In this document: positions 949 to 42,700 of the stretch, piece after piece
Layout of the letters: the number at the start of each line of letters is the position of its first letter
Position numbering within the stretch: position 1 is the first letter of the stretch
Source: Leifsonia xyli
GTDB taxonomy: Bacteria > Actinomycetota > Actinomycetes > Actinomycetales > Microbacteriaceae
NCBI GenBank assembly: GCA_001647635.1
Contig: CP014761.1
Location: 496,001 to 560,000 of the forward strand
Length of the DNA: 64,000 nt
Direction of reading: 5' to 3'
Notes under the pieces: model-generated
The model's database searches: none
Told to the model about the DNA's origin: nothing
Seen by the model: only the letters and a program-made list of their open reading frames with translations
Translations under genes and position numbers: made by a program

Positions 949-1080
949 ATAGATCTCCTTGCTTCTTTGGGGCGAATCCACGCTAGTTGGCGATGATCAA
1001 CCGTTGGCACCCCAGAACAGGGGTGCAGGCTGGCTGCTCAGGTCGAACTCGTTTGTTCTCGATCACGAGCCCGTTAGAAG

Positions 1081-1112
1081 GGCGGCGGCTGGTTCGGGTC
1101 GCAGCCGCCGCC
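1081..1112 (-). terminator. Hairpin downstream of the DUF4352 lipoprotein
   Basis: A perfect 10-bp stem, GGCGGCGGCT with AGCCGCCGCC, and a 12-base loop, lies just past the stop of the lipoprotein gene read leftward. It is followed by CTTCTAAC rather than a strong T run, so it is probably an intrinsic terminator of moderate strength. Confidence 0.55.
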
Positions 1113-1129
1113 CGGTACACCGGCGCTCG

Positions 1130-1669
1130 TCACTTGAGGTTGACGGTCTCCCCCTTGGAGAACGCGTTGTCGGACACCTGGATGCTGGCGGCGGTGGTGC
1201 CGGCGGGGACGTCGAACAGGATGGGGCCAGTGATGGCGTTCCCGGGGTTGATCGCGGCGACCCACGCGGACTGGTTCGGGCTGGCGTAGAGAGTCGCGGT
1301 CGGGTCGGCGTCGTAGGTCTTCCCGGTCCCGTCGACGAGCTTGACGTAGTTGGAGATGAACGTCGCGGCGCTGGTCCCGACGTTCTTGATGGTCAGGTCC
1401 ACCTCGATGAACGTGCCCTGCGCGGTCTTCGTGAGCGGGGAGGCTCCGGCGGTGGTGCCGGCGTCCTTGCTTGCCGTGGCGGTGTACTCGAACGAGCCAA
1501 CCTTCACAGGAGTGTTCAGCCCGGCGGTCGCCGGCGCGGCCGGGGCGGTAGAACCACCACCTCCGGTGGAACCGGCTCCGGCCGTGCCGCTGCCGGCGGA
1601 GCATCCGGTGAGAGCGAGACCGGCGATCAGTGCGACGGTGGCGGAGATGGTGGCGGTGCGACGGAACAT
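1130..1669 (-). CDS. DUF4352-type secreted lipoprotein
   Basis: A 179-residue lipoprotein. The chosen ATG follows AGGAGG at good spacing. The signal peptide ends in the lipobox LTGC (Cys23), followed by a Gly/Ser/Ala/Pro-rich linker. From about residue 55 comes an Ig-like DUF4352 domain (KVGSFEYTA, then FIEVDLTIKNVGTSAATF). DUF4352 proteins are cell-surface proteins of unknown role. The gene is convergent with nothing and divergent from the kinase gene at 1841. It is one of seven or so lipoproteins in this island. Confidence 0.82.
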   Translation of the reverse strand: MFRRTATISATVALIAGLALTGCSAGSGTAGAGSTGGGGSTAPAAPATAGLNTPVKVGSFEYTATASKDAGTTAGASPLTKTAQGTFIEVDLTIKNVGTSAATFISNYVKLVDGTGKTYDADPTATLYASPNQSAWVAAINPGNAITGPILFDVPAGTTAASIQVSDNAFSKGETVNLK

Positions 1670-1828
1670 GGTGTCCTCCTGGTGAGAGTTCTCGGGGCCG
1701 ACGTTCGGCCTCAACCAGGACACCGCGGGGCGACCCTCCTCCGACACGTCGGAACGGTCAGGATGCCGTGTACGAAAGTACGGTTCGGCCCCTCCGAAAG
1801 GTGGTGGGGACCTATCGCAGCCCGCATC

Positions 1829-1834
1829 TACGAT
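1829..1834 (+). promoter_or_regulatory. -10 box TACGAT, leaderless start at 1841
   Basis: TACGAT ends 6 bases before the kinase ATG, so transcription should begin at the start codon itself. No ribosome site is present. Confidence 0.6.
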
Positions 1835-1840
1835 CAGTGC

Positions 1841-3121
1841 ATGACCTCCACCCCACCCCCGACGAGCAGTTGGCCGGCGACCGCGCCCGTCCCGTCCATG
1901 CCGTCAACGGCTCGACGTCGCTGGGCGCTGGTCGGCTCGATCAGCTTGGCGGTGCTGTGTGCGCTGTTCGCGATGTCCGCCGGTGGCAACTACGGGACAA
2001 CCGGTTCGACATTCCCCGCGGCGGTGCAACTCCTGGCGATGGTCGGTGCGTTCGTGATGATCGGTGCGTCCGTGCTGCTGGTCTGGCGGCACCGTTTCCC
2101 GGTTCTTGTGTCCGCGCTCGCGATCGGCGGTGCCATCGTCTTCCCGACGACACCGCTGCCAGCCTTGGTCGCGTGTGCTGCGGCGACCGCTGCGATGACC
2201 GGGTGGCGGCGGTGGGCGATCGTCGCTGGAACGTACGTGGCGGTCTTCGTCTCGTTCTGCTGGGACATCGCCGCTCACGTGTCGATCCTGTCGGACTTCG
2301 TCAACGCGCCCGCGGAGGGAACCCCGGCCCGGCTGGCGATGTTCTGGTCGCTGCCGGTCCTCGCGGCTGTTGCTGTCGCACCGTTCGCTGGGTACGGGTT
2401 CGCCCGGCAGCTGCGCCGGGAACGGGACGCGGCGAGGCGTGGCGCGGTCGAAGCGAACCGGAACGTAGCGGTCCTCCACCACGAGGTGGAGCTAGAACGT
2501 GACCGGCAGGAGCTCGCCCGGGAACTGCACGACACTCTCGCCGCACGGCTCAGCTCCCTGTCCCTTCACGCCGGGGCTCTCGAGCTGACCGTCGACGGCA
2601 GCGATGACCGGGCGGCAGCAGCGGCCCGCGCGGTCCGCGAAACCGCGCAAAGCTCCCTCGACGAGCTGCGCAACGTTGTCCACACTCTCCGCAATCCGAC
2701 CGCCCCCGGTGTCAGCACTGGGCTCGCGGACATCTCCCATCTCATCGACGAAGCCCTTGCCGACGGCGTTGACGTTCGCGCGCAGGTCCTCGTCAACGAC
2801 CCGACATCCTGCGACCCGCAGGTCGCGCACGCCTGCTACCGGATCGTGCAGGAGTCGATCTCCAACGTCCGCCGACACGCGCCCGGCGCTGGTATCCGAG
2901 TCGAGGTCCGCGGAGGGCCCGACACCGGTCTGACCATCACGGCGACCAACTGGCTCACGCGACAGGCTGCGCCGACCTCAGTCGGGGGCGGGCACGGTCT
3001 CGCCGGTATGGGCGAACGGGTCACCCTCGTCGGCGGGTCTTTCCAAGCAGGGCCCACCCCGGACGGGACGTTCACCGTCCTCGTCTGGATGCCGTGGGCT
3101 CCCCGCACAATCGGCGTCTGA
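1841..3121 (+). CDS. NarL/DesK-type sensor histidine kinase
   Basis: A 426-residue kinase. Four or five hydrophobic helices occupy residues about 25-185, followed by a charged coiled segment and a HisKA_3 dimerisation domain with RELHDTL, in which His230 is the expected phosphorylation site. The C terminus has an HATPase fold: an N-box like YRIVQESISNVRRHA and a G-box with GGGHGLAGMGERV. The open frame extends far upstream, but the ATG at 1841 is preferred because of its promoter placement and because upstream residues look non-coding. It precedes the response regulator at 3144 by 22 bases. The signal sensed is unknown; there is no large extracellular domain. Confidence 0.9.
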   Translation: MTSTPPPTSSWPATAPVPSMPSTARRRWALVGSISLAVLCALFAMSAGGNYGTTGSTFPAAVQLLAMVGAFVMIGASVLLVWRHRFPVLVSALAIGGAIVFPTTPLPALVACAAATAAMTGWRRWAIVAGTYVAVFVSFCWDIAAHVSILSDFVNAPAEGTPARLAMFWSLPVLAAVAVAPFAGYGFARQLRRERDAARRGAVEANRNVAVLHHEVELERDRQELARELHDTLAARLSSLSLHAGALELTVDGSDDRAAAAARAVRETAQSSLDELRNVVHTLRNPTAPGVSTGLADISHLIDEALADGVDVRAQVLVNDPTSCDPQVAHACYRIVQESISNVRRHAPGAGIRVEVRGGPDTGLTITATNWLTRQAAPTSVGGGHGLAGMGERVTLVGGSFQAGPTPDGTFTVLVWMPWAPRTIGV

Positions 3122-3130
3122 ACCTCCCGG

Positions 3131-3136
3131 TAGACT
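3131..3136 (+). promoter_or_regulatory. -10 box TAGACT, leaderless start at 3144
   Basis: TAGACT ends 7 bases before the GTG of the response regulator. The regulator may therefore have its own promoter as well as read-through from the kinase gene. Confidence 0.5.
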
Positions 3137-3143
3137 CGCCGGC

Positions 3144-3800
3144 GTGACCGGCAGCCGACCAATCAGTGTCCTCGTCGTCGATGACGACGCGATGGCGGCG
3201 AACGGTCTCACTGCGCTGCTCGAACTGTCCGGAGACATCCGCGTCCTCGGCCGCTGCTCAGACGGGACAGAAGTCGCCGACGCCGTCGTCAACCTGCGCC
3301 CTGACGTCGTCCTGTGCGATGTGCGGATGCCGCGGATGGACGGGGTCGCCGTCGTCAAGCAGCTCGCCGGTACCGGTCCGGTGTTCCTCATGATGACCGC
3401 GTTCGACGAAGACGGACGTGTCCTCGACGCGGTCGCCGCCGGGGCAGCCGGTTTCATGCTCAAAGATGAGGACCCACGTCGGATCATCGACGCTGTCCTC
3501 GAAGTCGCCGCAGGGGACGCCGCGTTTTCCCCGCGCGCGGCGAGGCAACTGACCAGCTGGGTGCGGGACTCCCATGCGTCCGAAGCGCGCCGCGACGCGA
3601 CCGAGAAGATGGGCATGCTCACCGACCGGGAACGGGAGTACGCCATCGGGGTGACCAATGGGGCGTCGGACGCGGAGCTCGCGCAACAGTTCTTCGTCGC
3701 GGAGACCACCGTGAAGTCCGCCCTTGCCGGGATCCGCACGAAGTGGGGTGTGCGAACCCGCACTGAGCTCGCCGTGGTCGTCGCCCGCTCCGGCGCGTGA
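3144..3800 (+). CDS. NarL-family response regulator
   Basis: A 218-residue regulator starting at GTG. The receiver domain has the acidic pocket VVDDD near residues 12-15, phosphoacceptor Asp59 in LCDVRMPRMDG and Lys in LKDEDP. The C-terminal LuxR-type helix-turn-helix reads TDREREYAIG, then DAELAQQFFVAETTVKSAL. It is the obvious partner of the kinase 22 bases upstream. Targets are unknown; the envelope-protein genes around it are candidates by proximity only. Confidence 0.9.
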   Translation: MTGSRPISVLVVDDDAMAANGLTALLELSGDIRVLGRCSDGTEVADAVVNLRPDVVLCDVRMPRMDGVAVVKQLAGTGPVFLMMTAFDEDGRVLDAVAAGAAGFMLKDEDPRRIIDAVLEVAAGDAAFSPRAARQLTSWVRDSHASEARRDATEKMGMLTDREREYAIGVTNGASDAELAQQFFVAETTVKSALAGIRTKWGVRTRTELAVVVARSGA

Positions 3801-3886: not shown

Positions 3887-5047
3887 ATGAGTGACCCGAG
3901 CACCCCCGAATCACAGCAGCCCAACACCCCAGCATCGCCGCAGCCGACCCCTCCGCCGTCGCCCACTCCGAGCACCGACGGAATCGTCCCGCCCGCAGCG
4001 GGTGCGACCCCTCCGCCGCCGGCGCCGAGCCAGGCTCCCGGGGCGTACCCGCCTCCGCCTGCAGCTGGTCAGGCGCCGGGTGCGTACCCGCCACCTCCCG
4101 CCGGGACGGTCCCTCCCGCGCCGTACGGTGTTCCGCAGCCGCCGAAGAAGAGCGGGAACGGGTTCGCTGTCGCCGCTCTCGTTCTCGGCATCATCGGCGT
4201 CGTTTTCGCGTTCACCCCCGCCGCCGGCTTCGGCATCTTCCTCGGCATCCTTGCCCTGATCTTCGGCATCATCGCCCTGGTGCGGAAGCCCGCGAAATCC
4301 GGCGTGCCGATCAGCGGCACCGCGCTTGGAGCGGTCGCGCTCATCATCGGCATCATCTTCGCCGCCGTTTACGCGGGCGGTAAGACCGCACCGTCTGCCG
4401 CGGACGCACCGGCAGCGGCGAACACCGCGGCCGCCACCACCCCGGCGGCGCCGTCCCCGGAGCCTTCGAAGACGCAGACCCCGCCGGACCCGAACGCCGC
4501 GTACGACAAGACGTTCGGGACGTTCGCTCCGGTGAACCAGACCGGCACCGGCGACTCCGTCATCGCCCTCCCCGCCGGTGTGAAAGCTGGTGTCGTCACC
4601 GCGAGCCACCAGGGCTCGTCGAACTTCGTCCTCACCGTCCTCGACGCGTCGAACCAGTCCACCGGTGACCTCCTTGTGAACACCATCGGCAACTACGCCG
4701 GTGTCACCGCGTACGGGCTGAACGGACTCGGCGGTACTGGCGTGAACCTCCAGGTCAAAGCGGACGGCGCGTGGAATATCACCATCTCCCCGATCAGTGC
4801 CGCGCCGGAGCTCGGACTCCCAGGAGGTGCCACCGGCGACCAGGTGTACAAGTACAACGGCGCCGCCGGGAACTGGACGTTCACCAACCAGGGCCAGTCG
4901 AACTTCGTCGTCATCCAGTACGGCGGTGCCATGCCGAACCTCGCCGTGAACACCATCGGCGCGTACTCCGGCAAGGTCCCCATGTTCGCAGGACCGACCG
5001 TCATCACCGTGAAGTCCGACGGCGCCTGGACCGTCGCCGCCGGGTAA
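3887..5047 (+). CDS. Pro-rich DUF4190-like membrane protein with two surface repeats
   Basis: A 386-residue protein. The first 85 residues are Pro/Ala-rich with QAPGAYPPPP repeats. A pair of hydrophobic helices (about 90-145) resembles DUF4190, followed by a third helix. After an Ala/Pro/Thr linker come two tandem beta-rich repeats of about 90 residues, each with a SNFV core, an IGxYxG segment and a closing KxDGAW motif (ADGAWNI and SDGAWTV). The topology suggests a cytoplasmic proline arm and an external repeat domain. A decayed copy of this repeat is recognisable at 39263. Function unknown. An upstream in-frame ATG exists, but the start used follows an AGGA site. Confidence 0.85.
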   Translation: MSDPSTPESQQPNTPASPQPTPPPSPTPSTDGIVPPAAGATPPPPAPSQAPGAYPPPPAAGQAPGAYPPPPAGTVPPAPYGVPQPPKKSGNGFAVAALVLGIIGVVFAFTPAAGFGIFLGILALIFGIIALVRKPAKSGVPISGTALGAVALIIGIIFAAVYAGGKTAPSAADAPAAANTAAATTPAAPSPEPSKTQTPPDPNAAYDKTFGTFAPVNQTGTGDSVIALPAGVKAGVVTASHQGSSNFVLTVLDASNQSTGDLLVNTIGNYAGVTAYGLNGLGGTGVNLQVKADGAWNITISPISAAPELGLPGGATGDQVYKYNGAAGNWTFTNQGQSNFVVIQYGGAMPNLAVNTIGAYSGKVPMFAGPTVITVKSDGAWTVAAG

Positions 5048-5067
5048 CCCACGACCGCAACGCCAAC

Positions 5068-5102
5068 GGGGCGTCTCCATCTGGGAGACGCCCCGTTTCG
5101 TT
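5068..5102 (+). terminator. Intrinsic terminator between convergent genes
   Basis: Stem GGGGCGTCTC with GAGACGCCCC and a short loop, followed by GTTTCGTTT. It lies between the convergent genes ending at 5047 and 5126 and can act on both strands, more strongly on the plus strand. Confidence 0.8.
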
Positions 5103-5125
5103 TGCCCACTATGGGTGGCCCGCCT

Positions 5126-5569
5126 CTACGACAGTTCGGCGAGCCAGTGGTACCGCTCGAGGTCGGAAGCGGTGAGGTAGTCGGTGTCCTGGTATCCGTC
5201 CACATGCAGGCGGTAATACTTCTCTCCTCCTGGCACGCCGTCGATCTTCATCACGTAGTTGCATTCGCCCTGGTTCGCCGCCCACGAGGTAGTCCCCGCG
5301 CCGATCTTCCCCGTCGCGACGACGTCGCCGGACTGGTTCGTGACAGTCACCTGGCGCCCCTGCAGCGGATCCTCGAAGTCGCAGCGGCTGCCTTCCGGGA
5401 ACTGCTGCTTGGTCGCATAACCCAGCCCGAACGTGAACGTCCCATCGACCGTGAACGACGACGAGTGAGTCGCGTCCGGAGTGTCCGGGGCATCGCTTGC
5501 CGGCAGGGTCGTACACCCCGCTAAGAGAAGCGCAGAGGCGACCGCGGCAGAGGCAAACAGGGGTTTCAT
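5126..5569 (-). CDS. Small secreted lipoprotein, unknown
   Basis: A 147-residue lipoprotein with signal peptide and lipobox LAGC (Cys19). The mature part is rich in aromatic and Gly residues, has two Cys besides the lipidated one (CDFED and ECNYVM), and looks like an all-beta domain. I recognise no named family. The ATG start lies 6 bases after a TAGAGT box, so it is probably leaderless. It is convergent with the repeat protein and shares its terminator. Confidence 0.78.
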   Translation of the reverse strand: MKPLFASAAVASALLLAGCTTLPASDAPDTPDATHSSSFTVDGTFTFGLGYATKQQFPEGSRCDFEDPLQGRQVTVTNQSGDVVATGKIGAGTTSWAANQGECNYVMKIDGVPGGEKYYRLHVDGYQDTDYLTASDLERYHWLAELS

Positions 5570-5575
5570 GGTCGC

Positions 5576-5581
5576 ACTCTA
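5576..5581 (-). promoter_or_regulatory. -10 box TAGAGT, leaderless start at 5569
   Basis: Read on the minus strand, TAGAGT ends 6 bases before the lipoprotein ATG. No ribosome site is visible. Confidence 0.5.
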
Positions 5582-5739
5582 GTGTGGGAGCGCAATCGGT
5601 GGGCAGCGCATATCTTCATCCCAGTCCGGCACTGAATCGCAGCGGCCCGGCGGTAAACCTATCGGCGCGCACCGGCATCCGATAACGTCTGGTCAACGCC
5701 CGCCGCAGTGCGGGTCAGCATCTCCCGAAGGAGCTCATG

Positions 5740-6261
5740 ATGGCCGACCCCGGCTGGTACCCGGACCCGAGCGGTGCCCCGCAGCTGCGCTGGTACAACG
5801 GCTCGGGGTGGACAGAGAACACGGCACCGTACGCGGCTCCGACTCCGGCTACTGCACCACAGGTCGCTCGGCAGCCGGCTGCCGGATACCCGGCGACTCC
5901 AGCGCCGACGATTCAGCAGGCGCAGCAGTTCTATTCGCCGGCGGCGTCGCCGACTGTTAGCAAAGACCCTGGGTCCGCGCCGCGCCGTGGGCTCGTTCTC
6001 GGTGTGATCTCCGCCATCCTGGCCGTGCTGACGATTTTCTTCGGCCTGCTCGGCGGCACCGTTTACGCGTTGAACTGGCTCCTCTGGGTTGCACTGGTGG
6101 TCCTCGCTCTCCCCGCAACCGTGCTCGGCATCATCGGCCTCATCCAGTCATCCATCGGTCTCTCACGGTCCGTGGATCCCCAGCAGCGGAGGCAAGCCGG
6201 CATCGGACTCGGAACATCCATCGTCGGCTGCCTCTCAATCGTCCTCCTGTTCGTTCTGTGA
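5740..6261 (+). CDS. DUF2510 membrane protein
   Basis: A 173-residue protein. Two adjacent ATGs exist; the second is used because the GAAGGAG site is then 6 bases away. DUF2510 occupies residues 2-25 (DPGWYPDPSG, LRWYNGSGWTE). A Pro/Ala/Gln linker follows, then three hydrophobic helices like a DUF4190 module. Both this and the similar gene at 9722 probably sit in the membrane with the Trp-rich module inside. It leads a run of small membrane genes up to 6761. Function unknown. Confidence 0.83.
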   Translation: MADPGWYPDPSGAPQLRWYNGSGWTENTAPYAAPTPATAPQVARQPAAGYPATPAPTIQQAQQFYSPAASPTVSKDPGSAPRRGLVLGVISAILAVLTIFFGLLGGTVYALNWLLWVALVVLALPATVLGIIGLIQSSIGLSRSVDPQQRRQAGIGLGTSIVGCLSIVLLFVL

Positions 6262-7399: not shown

Positions 7400-8380
7400 T
7401 CAGCGTCCGATGATGCCGTGCTCGCGGGCGATGGTCACGGCGGTCACTCGGTCGTGGGCGCCGAGTTTCGCGTAGATGTGCTCGAGGTGCTTGTTCACGG
7501 TGGAGAGGCTGATCCGGAGCCTGTCGGCGATTGCTGCTGCGGTGTCGCCGGTGGCGACGGCATCGAGGATCTGGACCTCACGGTCCGTGAGCCCGAGGAG
7601 GTCCGCGATGCGAGCGCGGACGAGTGTCAGCCCGTCTGGTGACGACAACCTCAGGGTGACCCTGTGGGTACGGTCCAGGTTGACGGTCACTCTCCTCGAC
7701 CCGTCGGGTGACTCGACTCGGTCGCGGATGAAGCGCCAGAGGTCGGGGTGGTCTGCGAGCATTTCCGCGAAGCCTTCGGTTTGGTAGAGCACCTGGTCAT
7801 GGTGCTGGTCGAAAAGCAGCAGCATCTGGTTGCCGTCGAGGTAGCCGGTTTCCAAAGCGGTACGGACAAGCGCTGCGGTCCTGAGCTCCTCCACTCGGTC
7901 CCACGCCTTCCGCCACAGTGAGCGGTATCCGTCGAGGCGCTGCCGTTCCTTCTCCGTGAAGTCCCGGCCGCCGCGGTTCAACGACAGGGAGATGACGACC
8001 GGACCCTGAACCCACATCGCCGCGGCAAGCTGTGCCCGCAAACCCGCCGGTCTGAAGACCTCGCGGTAAAGCGGGTGCTCCGTCCATACCCGGCCGGGGA
8101 GCAGATCTTCGATGCTCACCCACTGTGTCGTGCGGGTCTGGAAGTAGTGCCGAATGAGTGGGTGCCCGAGGGGTGCTGCGCGCACGGCCGGCGAGAGGTC
8201 AGCGCCGGCGGTCTTCTGCGCCACCATTTCGTACCCGACTGCGGCTCCCACGGCGAGAGCGGCGACCCGCGTACTGTCAGCGCTGACCAGCGAGGCGGCG
8301 TCCTCCACCGCCGCCTGCGTCAGCTCGTCTTTGGTCCGCACCTCAAGGAGGCGCCCCACCTGCGTGTCGTATCCCGCCAT
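7400..8380 (-). CDS. GAF-type LuxR transcriptional regulator (intact copy)
   Basis: A 326-residue regulator. The N-terminal two thirds resemble a GAF-like sensor, with VVISLSLNRGGRDFTEKE near residue 190 (the xRxxxDFTxxE signature also present in the copies at 23660 and 28276). The last 65 residues are a LuxR helix-turn-helix (LTDREVQILDAVATG, IADRLRISLSTVNKHLEHIYAKLG). The start used has a G-rich ribosome site; the frame is open further upstream. It sits beside the secreted pair at 8461 and 8831, the same neighbours that the second copy has at 24408 and 24956. It probably controls one or both; the ligand is unknown. Confidence 0.85.
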   Translation of the reverse strand: MAGYDTQVGRLLEVRTKDELTQAAVEDAASLVSADSTRVAALAVGAAVGYEMVAQKTAGADLSPAVRAAPLGHPLIRHYFQTRTTQWVSIEDLLPGRVWTEHPLYREVFRPAGLRAQLAAAMWVQGPVVISLSLNRGGRDFTEKERQRLDGYRSLWRKAWDRVEELRTAALVRTALETGYLDGNQMLLLFDQHHDQVLYQTEGFAEMLADHPDLWRFIRDRVESPDGSRRVTVNLDRTHRVTLRLSSPDGLTLVRARIADLLGLTDREVQILDAVATGDTAAAIADRLRISLSTVNKHLEHIYAKLGAHDRVTAVTIAREHGIIGR

Positions 8381-8460
8381 ATCGGCCCCCGCGTGCCCAG
8401 CACCGGGATACTTCCATCGTCCCAGCCGGGAGCCGTCCGCGCGATACCGGATGCGGGTGG

Positions 8461-8712
8461 TCAGAAGGCGCGGCCGAACAACAACGGATGCGCCCGTTGC
8501 GTGTGCAAAACCTGCGACGGCATCTGCGGGCACGCCGGAAGCGTGTGAGCCCACGCTCGAGAACCAGTCAGGCACCGTTGCGGGATCGCGTCGGCGGGCG
8601 CGACGGCGTGTGTCGTCAGCGCGTCCGGTGCCATCGGCAGCTGCTCCGGTAACGGGGTCGGGGTCAGGCAGAAACACGCTGCGACCGCGACCGCGGTCAG
8701 TCCGAGAAGCAT
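8461..8712 (-). CDS. Small cysteine-containing lipoprotein, cassette copy A
   Basis: An 83-residue protein. The ATG is chosen because GGGAGG lies 8 bases upstream and the whole leader (GGGAGGTGATCA-CATG) is conserved in copy B. The hydrophobic leader ends in VAAC (Cys13), a plausible lipobox although the n-region has no positive charge. Conserved with copy B: ACFCLTPxPLPEQ, PADAxPxRCL, RAW and CPxMP. The C termini differ. It is divergent from the peptide gene at 8831. No known family. Confidence 0.68.
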   Translation of the reverse strand: MLLGLTAVAVAACFCLTPTPLPEQLPMAPDALTTHAVAPADAIPQRCLTGSRAWAHTLPACPQMPSQVLHTQRAHPLLFGRAF

Positions 8713-8830
8713 GATGATCACCTCCCTCGTCGAGAGGATGCTCCCTGCCGAGTGTCGGCCGCCATCGGAAGAACTACGAATGGCCCCGCTGCTCCTGCAG
8801 CGTCAGCATCGGAGCTGGGAGGTGAGTTTC

Positions 8831-9067
8831 ATGCTCAAGAGAACCCGCGCTCAGACCGCCGCGGCGGCCCTCGCCGTCTTCGCAGCGCTCACGCTGACGG
8901 TTGCTGCGCCGGCGACCGCTGACGCGAAGATCAAGGGCGAGCCGACGGTCCAAGTAGCGAAGGTCAAAGGCATCGACGGGCAACCGCAGGCGCTGGTCGC
9001 TTCGGGTCAGCCTCCGACGCATTGTGTGCCCGGCCGGTACAAGTGCCCACTCGGGATGGGACTCTGA
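8831..9067 (+). CDS. Secreted RYKCPLG peptide, cassette copy A
   Basis: A 78-residue precursor with a GGAGG site 8 bases before ATG. A typical Sec signal peptide (KRTR, then a long Ala/Leu core) ends near APATA, leaving about 48 residues: repeated acidic/basic PTVQVAKVKG, a GQPQALVASGQPP segment, then CVPGRYKCPLGMGL at the very end. The two cysteines could form a small disulfide loop. Copy B at 24956 keeps the C-x3-RYKCPLG end. Candidate extracellular signal, antimicrobial peptide or surface peptide; no homologous family is known to me. Confidence 0.72.
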   Translation: MLKRTRAQTAAAALAVFAALTLTVAAPATADAKIKGEPTVQVAKVKGIDGQPQALVASGQPPTHCVPGRYKCPLGMGL

Positions 9068-9087
9068 CCGGTCCGGTTGGGGGAACG

Positions 9088-9129
9088 AACCCGGCATCGC
9101 CCAGGTCCCTCCGGCGGTGCCGGGTTCGG
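9088..9129 (+). terminator. Terminator hairpin after peptide gene A
   Basis: A 14-bp stem, AACCCGGCATCGCC with GGCGGTGCCGGGTT (one G-T pair), 21 bases past the stop. No long T run. Its loop and right arm are conserved in copy B at 25209. Confidence 0.7.
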
Positions 9130-9166
9130 TAGGACACCAGGCACCTCGTAGGTCGGCGCCGCGGCG

Positions 9167-23659: not shown

Positions 23660-24386
23660 ATGAGCGTAGACCCGACGGCCACCCTCACGCTGTACGCACA
23701 ACCGGGCGTCACCCGCGCCGATTACCTCTCTGCGGCCCTCGACGCACTTTCTCACACCTTTCCTGGCGAGTCCGTCGGCTGGAATCGCTTCGACGCGGTC
23801 ACCGGAGAGGTCGAGATGGTCGGCACCCCGCCGGAAGTGTTCGGCCCAGACGCTGCGACGGCAGCCGCGCTCGCCCGAGTGCAGGACCATCCGATGGTCG
23901 TGAGCTACATGATCAACCTTGAAGGCATGGAGCCACGTCGGCTCAGCGACCTGGTGAGCCTAACCGACCTTCATCGCACGGACGCGTACCACGAGCTGCT
24001 GCACCCGGTCGGCGCGGAGTACCAGCTCACCGTGTTGTCTCACCGGCCGGCGAGGACGGCTGCCGCCACCTGGACGTTCAACCGCACCAGTCATGACTTC
24101 ACCGACAACGAGCTCGAACTTGCCACACACCTCCAACGAATACTCGTGCTCATCGAGCAGACCTGGGGCGTCACCGATCATCTGCCCGAGGAGTCGCCGC
24201 TCACCCCGCGGAGGCGCAAGTACTCGCCCTCATCGGTCACGGCATGACCGCCCGCGCTATCGGGTTCCGGCTTGGATCTCCGAAGGCACCATCCACAAGC
24301 ACGTCGAACACCTCTATCGGAAGCTCGGCGTCACCGACCGGGTCCTCGCTGTCGCCGCCGGCCGCCGTCTCGGCATCATCCCGTAA
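23660..24386 (+). pseudogene. GAF-LuxR regulator with two frameshifts (cassette copy B)
   Basis: Starts MSVDPTATLTLYAQPG after GGGGAGG. The sensor part ends with the signature RTSHDFTDNE and runs into LTPR, where the frame breaks. Adding one base at about 24210 and one at about 24275 restores LTPREAQVLALIGHG and LGISEGTIHKHVEHLYRKLG to the final stop, giving 242 residues. The length is two short of a multiple of three, in agreement. Without these fixes the protein lacks its DNA-binding domain. Confidence 0.75.
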
Positions 24387-24407
24387 TTAGACGGCCGACG
24401 GCAGCGG

Positions 24408-24665
24408 TCAGCGAACTCGTCCGAGCATGAACAGTCGAGGGCCGGCGTGCGTAACCGGCTGGACCGGCATTCGTGGACACACGGCGGCCAGACGCGACCA
24501 GGCCCTAGCTGATGCCAGGCACCGTTCCGGTACCGCATCGGCGGGCACCGCGGCGTGGACCGGAATCTCGAACGCGTCGGGCGTCACCGGAATCTGTTCC
24601 GGCAGAGGGGCCGGGGTGAGGCAGAAGCACGCGGCGACAACTGTCGCTGTGACTGCAAGCAGCAT
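24408..24665 (-). CDS. Small cysteine-containing lipoprotein, cassette copy B
   Basis: An 85-residue homologue of the protein at 8461, with the same leader DNA before ATG. Shared blocks: AACFCLTPAPLPEQ, PADAVPERCL, RAW, CPRMP. The lipobox-like VAAC is kept. It is convergent with the LuxR gene (gap 21 bases) and divergent from the peptide gene. Conservation of both sequence and spacing suggests a real functional unit. Confidence 0.68.
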   Translation of the reverse strand: MLLAVTATVVAACFCLTPAPLPEQIPVTPDAFEIPVHAAVPADAVPERCLASARAWSRLAAVCPRMPVQPVTHAGPRLFMLGRVR

Positions 24666-24812
24666 GGTGATCACCTCCCATCACCCGTGATGCTCGCGTT
24701 TTCCTTATCCAGCCACCATTGGCATATCTGCCCACCCGGCTCTGCCTACGCAGTTCTACCCATACCGCCCGCCTGTCGGAGAGCGCGAGCATCAGCGGTG
24801 GAGGTGGTCACC

Positions 24813-24953
24813 GTGAACGACGAGCACCCGCGGGACGACATCGACTGCATCGTCACGGACTGGTCGAGGATTGCCTTCCCGACCGTCGCCCTGCCGGTGA
24901 TGGCGGGCGCCCACGCTGCAGCTGCAACCAGCCCACTCCCGGAACGGAGATAG
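24813..24953 (+). CDS. 46-residue small protein between the cassette genes
   Basis: GTG preceded by GGAGGTGG. Reads VNDEHPRDDIDCIVTDWSR, then a hydrophobic stretch and ends PLPERR; its stop lies 2 bases before the peptide ATG. There is no counterpart in copy A. It may be a leader that couples translation to the peptide, or a remnant. Confidence 0.4.
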   Translation: MNDEHPRDDIDCIVTDWSRIAFPTVALPVMAGAHAAAATSPLPERR

Positions 24954-24955
24954 TG

Positions 24956-25188
24956 ATGAGCACGAAACCCCGCGCTGCCGCGGCGACCCTCGCCGTCCTC
25001 GCAGCGCTCACTCTCACCGTCACCGCGCCGGCTACCGCCGAAGCGAAGGTCAAAGGCGACCCCACGATCCGGATCGCGAAGATCAAGGACGTCGTCGGGC
25101 AGCCGGAGGCCCTCGTCGCTCCTGGGCAACCGCCGACGCCGTGCAAGCCCGATCGGTACAAGTGCCCGCTCGGGGCGGGCTGCTCTGA
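24956..25188 (+). pseudogene. Secreted RYKCPLG peptide, cassette copy B (probable frameshift at the end)
   Basis: MSTKPRAAA signal peptide ending APATA, then AKVKGDPTIRIAKIK, GQPEALVAPGQPP and CKPDRYKCPLG, closely matching copy A. As written the frame runs on past the terminator. If one G is added in the run near 25172-25178, it ends PLGGGLL at the TGA at 25188, where copy A stops. The read-through form would be a chimera through the hairpin, so the short form is more likely. Confidence 0.65.
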
Positions 25189-25208
25189 CCGGTCCGGATG
25201 GGGGAGAG

Positions 25209-25247
25209 CTCGGCACCGCCACCGTCCCTCCGGCGGTGCCGAGTTTC
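25209..25247 (+). terminator. Terminator hairpin after peptide gene B
   Basis: A perfect 12-bp stem, CTCGGCACCGCC with GGCGGTGCCGAG, 11-base loop, followed by TTTCG. Same position and related sequence as the hairpin at 9088. Confidence 0.75.
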
Positions 25248-28275: not shown

Positions 28276-29066
28276 TCACGTCTGCGGCGGCGTGAAATCC
28301 ACTCGAACGTCCCAGTTGAACTCCCCGGCGAGGTCCCCCTCCCGGAGAAGCCCGACCTCCCGCGCGCGAAGGACCGCGCTAAGACGGTCAGGGACTCCGA
28401 GCTTCAGATAGATGTTCTCCAGGTGCTTGTGGACGGTCCCGACGCTGATGCTGAGTCTGCTGCCGATCTCCTTCGCGGTATCTCCATGCGCCAACGCCAG
28501 AAGCACCTGCAATTCCCGCGGGTGACAGCGACGGCGGACGAGGCGATCCGGTTGAACGCTCGGAACACAGACACGAGGGCCGGCTGGACGTCGACCGCGA
28601 AGCGGAGTTCGGAATCAGTGAAGTCACTCGATGCGCGGTTGACTGCGAGATAGACCCAGGTGCCGGAACCGGTGAACGGCGACAGGGGGATGAAGGTGCT
28701 GAACCGGGCCCCGATCGGGTCCAGGTCCTCTCGGTATAGGCGGGAGGCCCTCAGCTCGTCGAACCCGATGGTGTCACTCATCCGCGCCGGCGCCCACCCC
28801 GGGTGCTGGTCGTACCACTGGAACACGGGATGCTCGGCGAGGTATCTCGCGACCGCGTCCACGGCCAGCGCTTGACGTTCAAGATAGGGGCGGAGCACGA
28901 CGCTCGCCGTTCCTCGGTCGAAGTCCATCTCGTTGTAGGACACGAGATCGGCTTCCAGCGTCGTGTCCAGCAGGTTCAGCGTCGAATCGACGAGCGCACC
29001 GAAGCTGCTCGCACCGGCGATCCGGTCCAGCTCGCTCAGCAACTGCTGCCTGTCGGGCATGCCCAT
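28276..29066 (-). pseudogene. GAF-LuxR regulator with one frameshift (third copy)
   Basis: MGMPDRQQLLSELDRIAG opens a sensor part with the family signature NRASSDFTDSELRF. The frame breaks at VAVT; one C added to the run at 28520-28522 gives TPRELQVLLALAHGD and LSISVGTVHKHLENIYLKLG to the stop, 263 residues in all. The break falls at the same TPRE junction as in the copy at 23660. No secreted cassette lies beside this copy. Confidence 0.72.
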
Positions 29067-29407
29067 CCGGTCACCGCCCGCCACACACGCGCATACGACC
29101 CTCCCCCACTGAAACGGCGGAATGATACTGCGACACCCACGCCTCCCACCACCGACGCTTGACCGGTCGGACGCCACCTCCGCCCGGCGATAGCCGTTGC
29201 GTCGAAAACCCAACCCCGGGACGCGACAGCGGCCCGCCCCGGCGATAGCCGCGGGTCCGTGCGCTAGCCGGCCCGATTCTTAAGAGGGAGAGTCGACAGA
29301 CACTCCCTCAACCACGGCGGAATCCGAAGGCCCCACGGGAACACGACCACACCCGTAAACAAGAAGGCAACCTCCATCAGAACCGACGCTCTCCCTACCC
29401 AACCCAG

Positions 29408-35721: not shown

Positions 35722-36378
35722 TCAAACCGCGCCGGTACGGAAGGCGTAGATCACCAGCTGAGCGCGGTCGCGACTGCCCGTCTTGGAGAGCAGGCTCCCG
35801 ATGTGCGTCTTCGCGGTCGCCATGCTGATGTGGAGCCGCGCGGTGATCTCGTCGTTGGAGAGGCCCTCGGCGATGAGCTGCAGCACCTCCTGTTCCCGAG
35901 CGGTGAGCGCCACCGCGGTAGGCGCATCGGAGGCCGGGGTGCTGGCAGGCTGTTGCGTTGCGAGGGCGTCGAGCAGCCGCCGCTGCACCGACGGGTCGAG
36001 TTGGGCGTCGCCGGCCGCGACGGAGCGGAGCGCGCGTTCGATGTCCTCGGCGGACGAGTCTTTGGTGAGGTAGCCGCGGGCGCCCGCGCGGAGTGCCCGG
36101 AATACCCAGGCGTCGTCGTCGTAGGTGGTCATCACGACGACGCGGATGTGCGGCAGCTCGGCGAGGATCTGCGCGGTCGCCTCGACGCCATCGAGGTGGG
36201 GCATGTTGAGGTCCATCAGGACCAGATCCGGTTGGCTGGTTCGAGCTTGGCGCACGGCGTCGTCGCCGTCGATGGCGGTGCCGACGACGGTGATGCCCTC
36301 GATGAGCCCGAGCAGCAAGGCGACGCCGTCGCGCACGATCTTCTGGTCATCGGCGACCAGCACGCGGAGCTCATTCAC
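35722..36378 (-). CDS. NarL-family response regulator
   Basis: A 218-residue regulator; its GTG overlaps the kinase stop (GTGA). Receiver with VLVADDQ, phosphoacceptor Asp in LVLMDLNMPHLDG and Lys in LTKDSSAED. An Ala/Thr/Pro linker is followed by the LuxR HTH LTAREQEVLQLIAEG, LSNDEITARLHISMATAKTHIGSLL. It may control the CPBP protease gene downstream. Confidence 0.92.
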   Translation of the reverse strand: MNELRVLVADDQKIVRDGVALLLGLIEGITVVGTAIDGDDAVRQARTSQPDLVLMDLNMPHLDGVEATAQILAELPHIRVVVMTTYDDDAWVFRALRAGARGYLTKDSSAEDIERALRSVAAGDAQLDPSVQRRLLDALATQQPASTPASDAPTAVALTAREQEVLQLIAEGLSNDEITARLHISMATAKTHIGSLLSKTGSRDRAQLVIYAFRTGAV

Positions 36379-37520
36379 GCGGGCACTTCCGTTCGCGACA
36401 GGGGCAGGGAACAGCTGGTCTCGAAGCCGTCCTCGGTGGGTCCGCCAGTGAACTCGCCTCCGAGGGCCTGGGCGCGCTCGGCCAGGCCGGAGAGGCCGAA
36501 CCCGGTGGCGAGCATTTCCGACGGGGCACTGCCGGCGTTTCGGACACTGACGACGACCTCGTCGGGTGACCACCGCAGTTCGATGGCCACGGATCGGCTG
36601 TCGGCGGCGTGCTTGCGGACATTGCTCAGTGACTCCTGGACGGTGCGGAACACCGCGAGACCGATATCGCCGTCCACGGCCACCGGCTCGCCCGATTGGT
36701 GCAATCGAGCGGGGATCCCCGTGTCCCGGGAGAAGGAGGTCACCAGAGTCGGAAGGTCAGCGAGATTCGCGAGCGCCTCGCCGCGCAGCGCTGCGATGGC
36801 CCGCTTGCCCTCGGCGACCCCGTCGCGGGCCGACTTCTGCGCCAGCGCGAGTTGCTCCAGGACGCGCGGGTCCGTGTGCGTCCGCTCGCCCAGCAGGCGG
36901 GCGGCTTCCAGCTGCAGGCTCAGGCCCGACAGCGTGTGCGCGAGGACGTCGTGCAGTTCTCGCGCGAGGCGGGCCCGCTCGCCGAGCGCTGCCGCGTCGT
37001 CGCGCGCCTTGCGGGTCTCCGCCTCCTGCCGCAGCAGCTGCTCGGCGCGCACCGTGGCGTCGCGCTTGAGGGCCGCGAAAGAGGAGGCCGCGAAGAAGAA
37101 CAGGAGGCCCAGCACGATGTTGAGCAGCGCGTTCCAGGGGTGGTCGCTGGTGACCGCCTCAGCCGCGGCGACTAGAACGAGCACCGGGATCGACGCGAGC
37201 AACGCCGGTCGCGGCGGCATGCTCAGCGCGATGGCGGACACGGCGACGAATCCGGCGACGAAGCCAGGGCCCCACGGTTGCCAGAGGTCGAGGACGGCGC
37301 CGGCCAGGCCGTACAGCGCGAACCCCGCAACGCGCCAGCGCATCAGCGAGGTGGGGAGGAGCAGGGCAGGGGTCCAGATCCCCGCGGATAGGAGGACGAC
37401 GAGCACAAACAGCTCGCGCGGCACGGACTGCGGCGGTTCCGAGAGCAGGCACACGGCGGCGACGACGCCTGCCACCGCCGCACCCAGCTGCGTGAAGGAG
37501 AAGGTCAGGTATCGCCTCAT
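36375..37520 (-). CDS. NarL/DesK-type sensor histidine kinase
   Basis: A 381-residue kinase with five or six helices in the first 145 residues, a coiled segment, the HisKA_3 box RLARELHDVLAHTLSGLSLQ with the phosphoacceptor His, and an HATPase domain (FRTVQESLSNVRKHA, GFGLSGLAERAQALGG). ATG 6 bases after TAGTGT. Overlaps its regulator. Confidence 0.92.
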   Translation of the reverse strand: MRRYLTFSFTQLGAAVAGVVAAVCLLSEPPQSVPRELFVLVVLLSAGIWTPALLLPTSLMRWRVAGFALYGLAGAVLDLWQPWGPGFVAGFVAVSAIALSMPPRPALLASIPVLVLVAAAEAVTSDHPWNALLNIVLGLLFFFAASSFAALKRDATVRAEQLLRQEAETRKARDDAAALGERARLARELHDVLAHTLSGLSLQLEAARLLGERTHTDPRVLEQLALAQKSARDGVAEGKRAIAALRGEALANLADLPTLVTSFSRDTGIPARLHQSGEPVAVDGDIGLAVFRTVQESLSNVRKHAADSRSVAIELRWSPDEVVVSVRNAGSAPSEMLATGFGLSGLAERAQALGGEFTGGPTEDGFETSCSLPLSRTEVPA

Positions 37521-42620: not shown

Positions 42621-42625
42621 ATCCG

Positions 42626-42700
42626 TGGGGCCTCAGGGACTCGAACCCTGGACCTGACCAGTTATGAGCTGGCTGCTCTAACCTGCTGAGCTAAGACCCC
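42626..42700 (-). tRNA. tRNA-Met (CAT)
   Basis: Full cloverleaf on the minus strand: acceptor GGGGTCT with AGGCCCC, D arm TAGCTCAGCAGGTTAGAGCA, anticodon loop CTCATAA (anticodon at 42664-42666), T arm CAGGG-TTCGAGT-CCCTG, discriminator A. No initiator-type mismatch at the first pair, so elongator Met (or Ile with modified CAT). Confidence 0.93.

What the first reader, a model, noticed from the sequence alone, without database searches (positions are those of the whole stretch)
7400..9130. Duplicated regulator/lipoprotein/secreted-peptide cassette with a conserved C-x3-RYKCPLG end
Seen directly: a GAF-LuxR regulator, an 83-85 residue Cys lipoprotein and a divergent secreted peptide occur together here and again at 23660-25247. 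The peptide pair agrees best at its last residues (CVPGRYKCPLG and CKPDRYKCPLG), the lipoprotein leader DNA is nearly identical, and both peptide genes end in related hairpins. Signal peptides predict export. Inference: a short disulfide-looped peptide plus surface lipoprotein and one-component regulator may be a peptide signalling or peptide antimicrobial/immunity system. I know of no described family that fits.
Basis: partly seen in the sequence, partly recalled or inferred. Interest (0 to 1): 0.8.

Follow-up and report, generated by a model that had tools for sequence, protein, structure and literature searches.

The report
LuxR-box-linked secreted peptide cassettes in Leifsonia
Soil bacteria of the genus Leifsonia carry undescribed gene cassettes for small exported proteins, one with a short cysteine loop, each preceded by the same short DNA box that also lies beside a quorum-sensing-type regulator; this looks like an unknown chemical weapon or signal.

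Summary
The cassette is real; its anatomy is only partly as described. A Sec-type secreted peptide (CxPxRYKCPLG end) and a divergent small Cys protein lie at 8461-9067 and again at 24408-25180. Both evolve under purifying selection and give 25 and 37 database hits, the window's own included, all named ones Leifsonia, with no Pfam, NCBIfam or PADLOC family.

Corrections: the two regulators are not copies of each other and the second is broken. A strict lipobox is met in 15 of 33 'lipoproteins'.

The copy-2 regulator is 80% identical to an intact one beside the G019 cassette, modelled as a GAF-LuxR fold.

Most likely a GAF-LuxR-controlled exported peptide with a surface partner, bacteriocin-like or a signal. 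Regulation is supported by sequence only; function is inferred.

The parts
7400..8380 (-). LuxR-type regulator P0003 (326 aa), downstream of and co-directional with the small Cys protein of copy 1
   Evidence: GerE E 5.3e-16 at residues 264-318; full-length relative in G006 and HTH relative in G019 without cassette
   Evidence: (P0011 identical)
8761..8777 (-). 17-bp box facing the small Cys protein, 48 nt before its ATG (GTAGTTCTTCCGATGGC)
8768..8784 (+). 17-bp box facing peptide 1, 46 nt before its ATG (GAAGAACTACGAATGGC)
8831..9067 (+). secreted peptide 1, class A, ends CVPGRYKCPLGMGL
9086..9128 (+). hairpin after peptide 1, 16-bp stem, loop with GTCCCTCC
23660..24247 (+). GAF part of the broken copy-2 regulator (195-aa frame, P0069); 80% identical to P0068 of G019
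24093..24386 (+). ORF in another frame that carries the HTH end of the copy-2 regulator
   Evidence: GerE remnant E 5.3e-5 at residues 62-87; 61% identical over 36 residues to L054
24408..24665 (-). small Cys protein, type I, copy 2 (85 aa)
   Evidence: (P0008 identical)
24715..24731 (-). weak 17-bp box facing the small Cys protein, 49 nt before its ATG; chosen by eye, not found by the patterns
24750..24766 (+). 17-bp box, 46 nt before the leaderless small ORF (GCAGTTCTACCCATACC)
24813..24953 (+). leaderless small ORF of the DC-IDW type (46 aa, GTG start), ends 2 nt before the peptide-2 ATG
   Evidence: similar ORFs in G021 and G007
24956..25180 (+). secreted peptide 2, class A, to CKPDRYKCPLG(AG); the frame as assembled runs on to 25357
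25206..25246 (+). hairpin after peptide 2, 15-bp stem, loop with GTCCCTCC

Best explanation
An accessory small-protein module of Leifsonia. A GAF-LuxR transcription factor of quorum-sensing fold senses an unknown cue and binds a palindromic 17-bp box (core GYAG-WW-CTRC, then NNATRSC). The box stands 44-50 nt before the first gene of each small transcription unit, so the peptide unit and the divergent small Cys protein are switched on together. The peptide is exported by the Sec route and cut after A-x-A; its conserved C-terminal ~25 residues (PGQPPxPCxPGR[YW]KCPLG, or YKPGPPPVWCGIVRFCPY), closed by one disulfide loop, act outside the cell. The small Cys protein is the membrane or surface partner. 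I think a bacteriocin-like peptide with its immunity or anchoring partner is most likely, a signal peptide second. Shown by sequence: the genes, their selection, the boxes and their spacing, the hairpin loop, the regulator's predicted fold and its linkage. Inferred: binding of the box by the regulator, cleavage, disulfide, and the activity of the peptide.
For: Box: 14 of 14 small transcription units read have it 44-50 nt before the start codon (two sites, copy-2 small Cys protein and G021 MSEPE, are weak and were chosen by eye). A relaxed pattern, widened after the sites were seen, gives 14 hits in 268 kb of held loci: 13 before small genes, 1 behind a GAF-LuxR of another genus; ten Markov shuffles gave 0-1. 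The strict pattern gave 12 hits in 28 genus genomes against 4 for the reversed control; 8 were known sites, and 2 of the 4 new ones lie at or within about 15 nt of a GAF-LuxR stop codon and before a small gene (G006, G007). Regulator: profile matches at E<=1e-20 in 5 of 28 genomes, the five that have box-linked small genes; the P0068 GAF region has 10 database matches at E<=1e-6 (itself included), 5 of them on contigs whose length equals that of a cassette contig. Fold: RhlR, TraR, SdiA, VqsR. Export, read by eye: K/R n-region, long hydrophobic core, AxA. Divergent partner is type I for class A (copy 1, copy 2, G019) and type II for class B (G007). Patchy spread: 3 of 28 genus genomes have the peptide (G007 only at E 6.8e-4, confirmed by context).
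Against: With an earlier 18-bp pattern at up to 2 mismatches the reversed control hit more often than the pattern (52 against 22 in six genomes), so only close matches mean anything. The patterns were derived from sites they then mark, and orthologous loci are not independent (G006 resembles G021). In G007 no intact regulator is near the cassette; one of the two G007 GAF-LuxR genes has no box in 10 kb (L144). The small Cys protein gave no usable model (pLDDT 61). No transporter or processing enzyme was seen in the ORF lists, but none was systematically searched for. Cleavage, disulfide and activity are untested.
Confidence: 0.45

Rival explanations
1. Peptide quorum sensing: the exported loop peptide, or a re-imported fragment, is the cue that the GAF-LuxR answers to, with classes A and B as pherotypes and the small Cys protein as receptor or processing partner.
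For: Quorum-sensing fold of the regulator; same box before the small units; two mature sequences behind one kind of signal peptide; divergent partner type changes with peptide class in the four loci read.
Against: A GAF sensor sits in the cytosol and no importer was seen. The mature sequence is well conserved within a class, unlike many pheromones (recalled). No box was found before regulator genes in the held loci.
Confidence: 0.25
2. Envelope or host-interaction module: surface or secreted factors switched on by a plant or soil metabolite sensed by a LuxR solo, with no toxin or signal role.
For: LuxR solos are numerous in Gram-positive bacteria (PMC5539150, passages). Box-linked genes differ widely (CPLG peptide, DPF-GARP proteins, leaderless ORFs); in G149 the ORF behind regulator and box reads, by eye, like a nitroreductase-type enzyme.
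Against: A peptide and a class-linked partner in one divergent promoter fit a dedicated pair better.
Confidence: 0.25
3. Decaying remnant of an island module.
For: Copy-2 regulator broken, peptide-2 frame runs on, type-II relic in G024, HTH remnant in G007.
Against: dN below dS, conserved C-termini, boxes and hairpin loops across species. Some frame breaks may be assembly errors (P0043 ends normally).
Confidence: 0.05

Closest known systems
LuxR-type quorum-sensing regulators and their lux/tra boxes (RhlR, TraR, SdiA, VqsR)
   Same: GAF-like ligand domain plus GerE HTH; palindromic box with a GCAG-NN-CTGC core as in the tra box (tra box recalled; the search for it found no paper).
   Different: Targets would be Sec-exported small peptides in an actinobacterium; LuxI was not searched for; full-length superposition is loose (rmsd about 12 A, so domain arrangement differs).
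Sec-exported unmodified bacteriocins of Gram-positive bacteria (lactococcin 972 type; recalled)
   Same: Small precursor with a Sec-type signal peptide.
   Different: No match above cut-off in Pfam, NCBIfam or PADLOC; the conserved part is ~25 aa with one Cys loop; the partner gene is divergent.
RRNPP and agr-type peptide signalling of Firmicutes (recalled)
   Same: Short secreted peptide near a regulator gene.
   Different: The regulator is GAF-LuxR; no kinase or AgrB-like enzyme belongs to the recurring part.

Membership tests
GAF-LuxR regulators (quorum-sensing LuxR fold) | C-terminal GerE/LuxR HTH | tested here: met
   P0003 GerE 58.4 bits; P0068 carries PF00196
GAF-LuxR regulators (quorum-sensing LuxR fold) | N-terminal GAF-like domain | tested here: met
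GAF-LuxR regulators (quorum-sensing LuxR fold) | binds an acyl-homoserine lactone | not testable with these tools
   no binding data
Bacterial lipoproteins (Lsp substrates) | basic n-region, hydrophobic core, lipobox ending in Cys | tested here: inconclusive
   strict lipobox 15 of 33; 25 of 33 without K/R before the Cys; some members may be lipidated
Sec-exported bacteriocins | cleavable Sec signal peptide | tested here: inconclusive
   all parts visible by eye in alignment A4; no signal-peptide predictor was run
Sec-exported bacteriocins | growth inhibition of relatives and self-immunity | not testable with these tools
   needs an assay
Known curated protein families | match to a Pfam, NCBIfam or PADLOC model | tested here: not met
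   none for the small Cys proteins given; of the peptides only P0004 has a match, below cut-off (DUF4148, E 0.086)

The most novel reading that the evidence does not exclude
A quorum-sensing circuit in which a LuxR-fold GAF receptor, known elsewhere for small diffusible ligands, answers to and drives Sec-exported disulfide-loop peptides through lux/tra-like boxes, with class A and class B peptides as pherotypes matched to partner types I and II.
Probability: 0.18. Interest if true: 0.85.

Novelty: new variant of a known kind. Interest (0 to 1): 0.6.

Why it matters
Most LuxR-type regulators of Gram-positive bacteria have no known ligand or target: one survey counts 68,769 LuxR solos against 11 LuxI (PMC5539150, passages), and a review lists Leifsonia only with a putative AHL signal (PMC4748050, passages). 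Here a defined box gives such regulators a testable target set of small proteins without a curated family. If the peptide kills or signals, it is a new unmodified peptide class.

Tried and rejected
Relatives of the small Cys protein in genome contigs, viral contigs, plasmids and phages: none found, so a plasmid or phage home is not supported; the tools note that records near the window's genome may be left out. Family hits of the small-Cys-protein profile outside the genus (G062, G136, G283, G320; 4 of the 6 of 299 genomes with a match): G062 and G320 were opened and the match lies among long overlapping frames with no similar small ORF; G136 and G283 were not opened. Peptide-profile hits in the family (10 of 398 genomes): 8 besides G000 and G019, all weak (E 1e-4 to 7e-4), over the first 33-60 of 76 positions and inside frames of 366-785 aa; judged signal-peptide matches from the table, not opened.

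GTCCCTCCG hairpin as a general terminator: the 9-mer occurs 72 times in the genome (reversed control 48) and 4 times in the window against 2 expected. Of the 72 sites, 30 loci (32 occurrences) were examined; a strong stem was found at the two cassettes and one place where the motif is shifted off the loop. A role of the CCUCC loop as anti-Shine-Dalgarno RNA is left open; Rfam gave no gathering-level match there, one chance-level one.

Homology of MSEPE and DC-IDW ORFs: not shown (hhalign probability 0.8%). The copy-2 ORF shows no constraint when aligned with the G019 MSEPE ORF (dN 0.76, dS 0.93). Island insertion repeat at tRNA-Met: none of 14 bases or more in 104 kb. Structure of the small Cys protein: unusable. 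CPLG as in oxytocin (recalled): four residues, treated as chance. Literature: seven searches listed no paper whose title or abstract start describes these genes; only PMC4748050 and PMC5539150 were opened, as passages.

Rows left out before counts: A3 holds 33 of 37 hits (P0031, P0033, P0034, P0042 left out as extended, fused or atypical). A4 holds 21 of 25 peptide hits plus P0004, P0005 and the G007 peptide (P0043, P0044, P0063, P0065 left out as near-duplicates or truncated). A7 leaves out P0069, P0073 and other fragments.

Full report
The window lies at 496001-560000 of a 3.60-Mb single-contig genome. Its genus is most likely Leifsonia: every database relative of the small proteins that bears an organism name comes from Leifsonia, and the contig of strain fls2-241-R2A-40a has the length (3,749,333) of contig 1 of G019, a genome of the same genus.

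The genes. Peptide 1 (8831-9067) and peptide 2 (24956 on) are related at E 2.6e-29; the small Cys proteins at 8461-8712 and 24408-24665 are 52% identical. dN is well below dS for both families among copy 1, copy 2 and G019 (and G007 for the small Cys protein). The class B peptide of G007 is more diverged (dN 0.49-0.53, dS 0.68-0.94). The database search gave 37 small Cys proteins and 25 peptides, the window's own included. Of the 25 peptide hits, 11 share a longest-contig length with a small-Cys-protein hit (878, 1152, 1742, 2045, 2280, 3089, 3311, 7197, 10506, 29341, 3749333); equal length stands in for identity, as contig names are not shown.

Two peptide classes exist. Class A ends PGQPPxPCxPGR[YW]KCPLG; class B ends YKPGPPPVWCGIVRFCPY or, in G007 and P0050, the shorter WCGSVRLCS. 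Both start with the same kind of signal peptide, followed by a spacer of variable length, so the conserved C-terminal part is the likely mature peptide. Two main types of small Cys protein exist: type I (about 85 aa) and the shorter type II ending DPFESVGARLWLLHVR. In the four loci read as DNA the divergent partner of class A is type I (copy 1, copy 2, G019) and of class B type II (G007).

Is it a lipoprotein? The hydrophobic start is short, lacks a basic residue in 25 of 33 and meets a strict lipobox in 15 of 33. Two distant ORFs in G021 and G006 share the DPF..GA[RH]P end (C-terminal profile E 5.4e-4 and 1.4e-4, next hit 0.15, among 2555 ORFs; the full-length profile gives only E 0.05-0.09). 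They have ordinary-looking signal peptides and no Cys there. I therefore call it a small exported or membrane-bound protein.

The regulator. The copy-2 regulator is broken in this assembly but 80% identical over 184 residues to the intact P0068 beside the G019 cassette. P0068 models well (pLDDT 86.6) as a GAF domain plus LuxR HTH; the best solved matches are RhlR, TraR, SdiA and VqsR by Foldseek, VqsR and phytochrome GAF domains by VIA-align. A search with its GAF part gives 10 proteins, itself included, 5 of them on contigs matching cassette contigs by length (3749333, 3596761, 6032, 2280, 971236). Profile matches at E<=1e-20 occur in 5 of 28 genus genomes and at E<=1e-35 in 5 of 398 sampled family genomes, two of them of other genera. 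P0003 of copy 1 is a different, longer regulator whose relatives in G006 and G019 have no cassette beside them. The regulator link rests on the P0068 group rather than on P0003.

The box. The divergent regions hold outward-facing 17-bp sites with a palindromic core GYAG-WW-CTRC and a flank NNATRSC. The distance from site to start codon is 44-50 nt in 14 of 14 small transcription units read; two of these sites are weak and were picked by eye. In 268 kb of held loci a relaxed pattern, widened after seeing the sites, hits 14 times: 13 before small genes and once behind a GAF-LuxR of another genus, G149, where the distance is 31 nt; ten Markov shuffles gave 0-1. A strict pattern, written from 12 sites of which 8 match it, hit 12 times in 28 genus genomes against 4 for its reverse. 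The four new hits are G006 and G007 at or just behind GAF-LuxR stop codons, and G002 and G023, which by eye look like chance. Behind the G006 box lies a DPF-GAHP protein, behind the G007 box a DC-IDW ORF. Against this, an earlier 18-bp pattern at up to two mismatches hit 22 times in six genomes while its reverse hit 52 times; its five hits with 0-1 mismatch comprise four at cassettes and one elsewhere in G007. The five genomes with box-linked small genes (G000, G006, G007, G019, G021) are the five with the regulators; the G021 locus was found through its regulator, so this agreement is partly built in.

More parts. A leaderless small ORF precedes the peptide gene and overlaps or nearly touches it in G019, G007 (MSEPE type) and copy 2 (DC-IDW type); copy 1 has none. 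The same two ORF types recur behind boxes in G021 (both) and at a second place in G007 (DC-IDW). Hairpins after the peptide genes keep the loop GTCCCTCCG in 4 of 4 loci while stems differ; behind the MSEPE ORF of G021 a similar inverted repeat carries GGCCCTCCG (by eye). The 9-mer itself is not rare (72 sites).

Distribution. The peptide is found in 3 of 28 genus genomes: G000, G019 and, weakly but with context, G007. In samples of 398 family and 396 order genomes no convincing hit lies outside the genus. The cassette sits in different neighbourhoods in G000, G019 and G007. The window's part of lower third-position GC ends at a tRNA-Met gene, which fits an accessory island.

Mechanism. The sequence makes a good case that box, GAF-LuxR and small exported proteins form one regulated unit. 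That the regulator binds the box, that the peptide is cut and disulfide-closed, and that it kills or signals are inferences. Patchy spread, two mature-sequence classes behind one kind of signal peptide, and a partner that tends to follow the class fit a bacteriocin with partner slightly better than a pheromone; neither is shown. The seven paper searches listed nothing that describes these genes.

Noticed in passing
window 42625-42700: tRNA-Met gene at the change from lower third-position GC (1-42620) to high (42896 on), a likely edge of an accessory island; no flanking repeat of 14 bases or more in 104 kb.
   Followed up: partly
window 28276-29213 (-): Another LuxR-type gene of the same wider group, split over two frames, so more than one LuxR gene here is broken or misassembled.
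   Followed up: no
L145 (G021) 4162-5792: Compact relative without a Cys-loop peptide: box + DC-IDW ORF, box + MSEPE ORF + inverted repeat, GAF-LuxR, box + DPF-GARP protein.
   Followed up: partly
L163 (G149) 1501-2640: In another genus a GAF-LuxR is followed by the same box and an enzyme-like ORF instead of a small peptide gene.
   Followed up: no
L040 (G024) 1498-1665 (-): Relic of a type-II small Cys protein end (CPRLPRDPFDSVEARLRLLHVR) beside a Val-Cys-Gly-Val tRNA cluster; in G019 a P0003-like HTH lies beside the same kind of cluster (L098).
   Followed up: partly
P0034 and P0073 (Leifsonia sp. NPDC077715, contig length 971236): Start of a small Cys protein fused in frame to a LuxR HTH, and a regulator cut short on a contig of the same length: probably a rearrangement between the neighbouring genes.
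   Followed up: no
window 8713-8726 and 24666-24679, L004, L005: Very strong ribosome-binding sites: GGAGGTG stands before 11 of the 14 small units.
   Followed up: no
window 959-3800 and 36375-37520: Histidine kinase genes of the HisKA_3 type, the first with a response regulator; only distant similarity to the pair next to the G019 cassette.
   Followed up: partly
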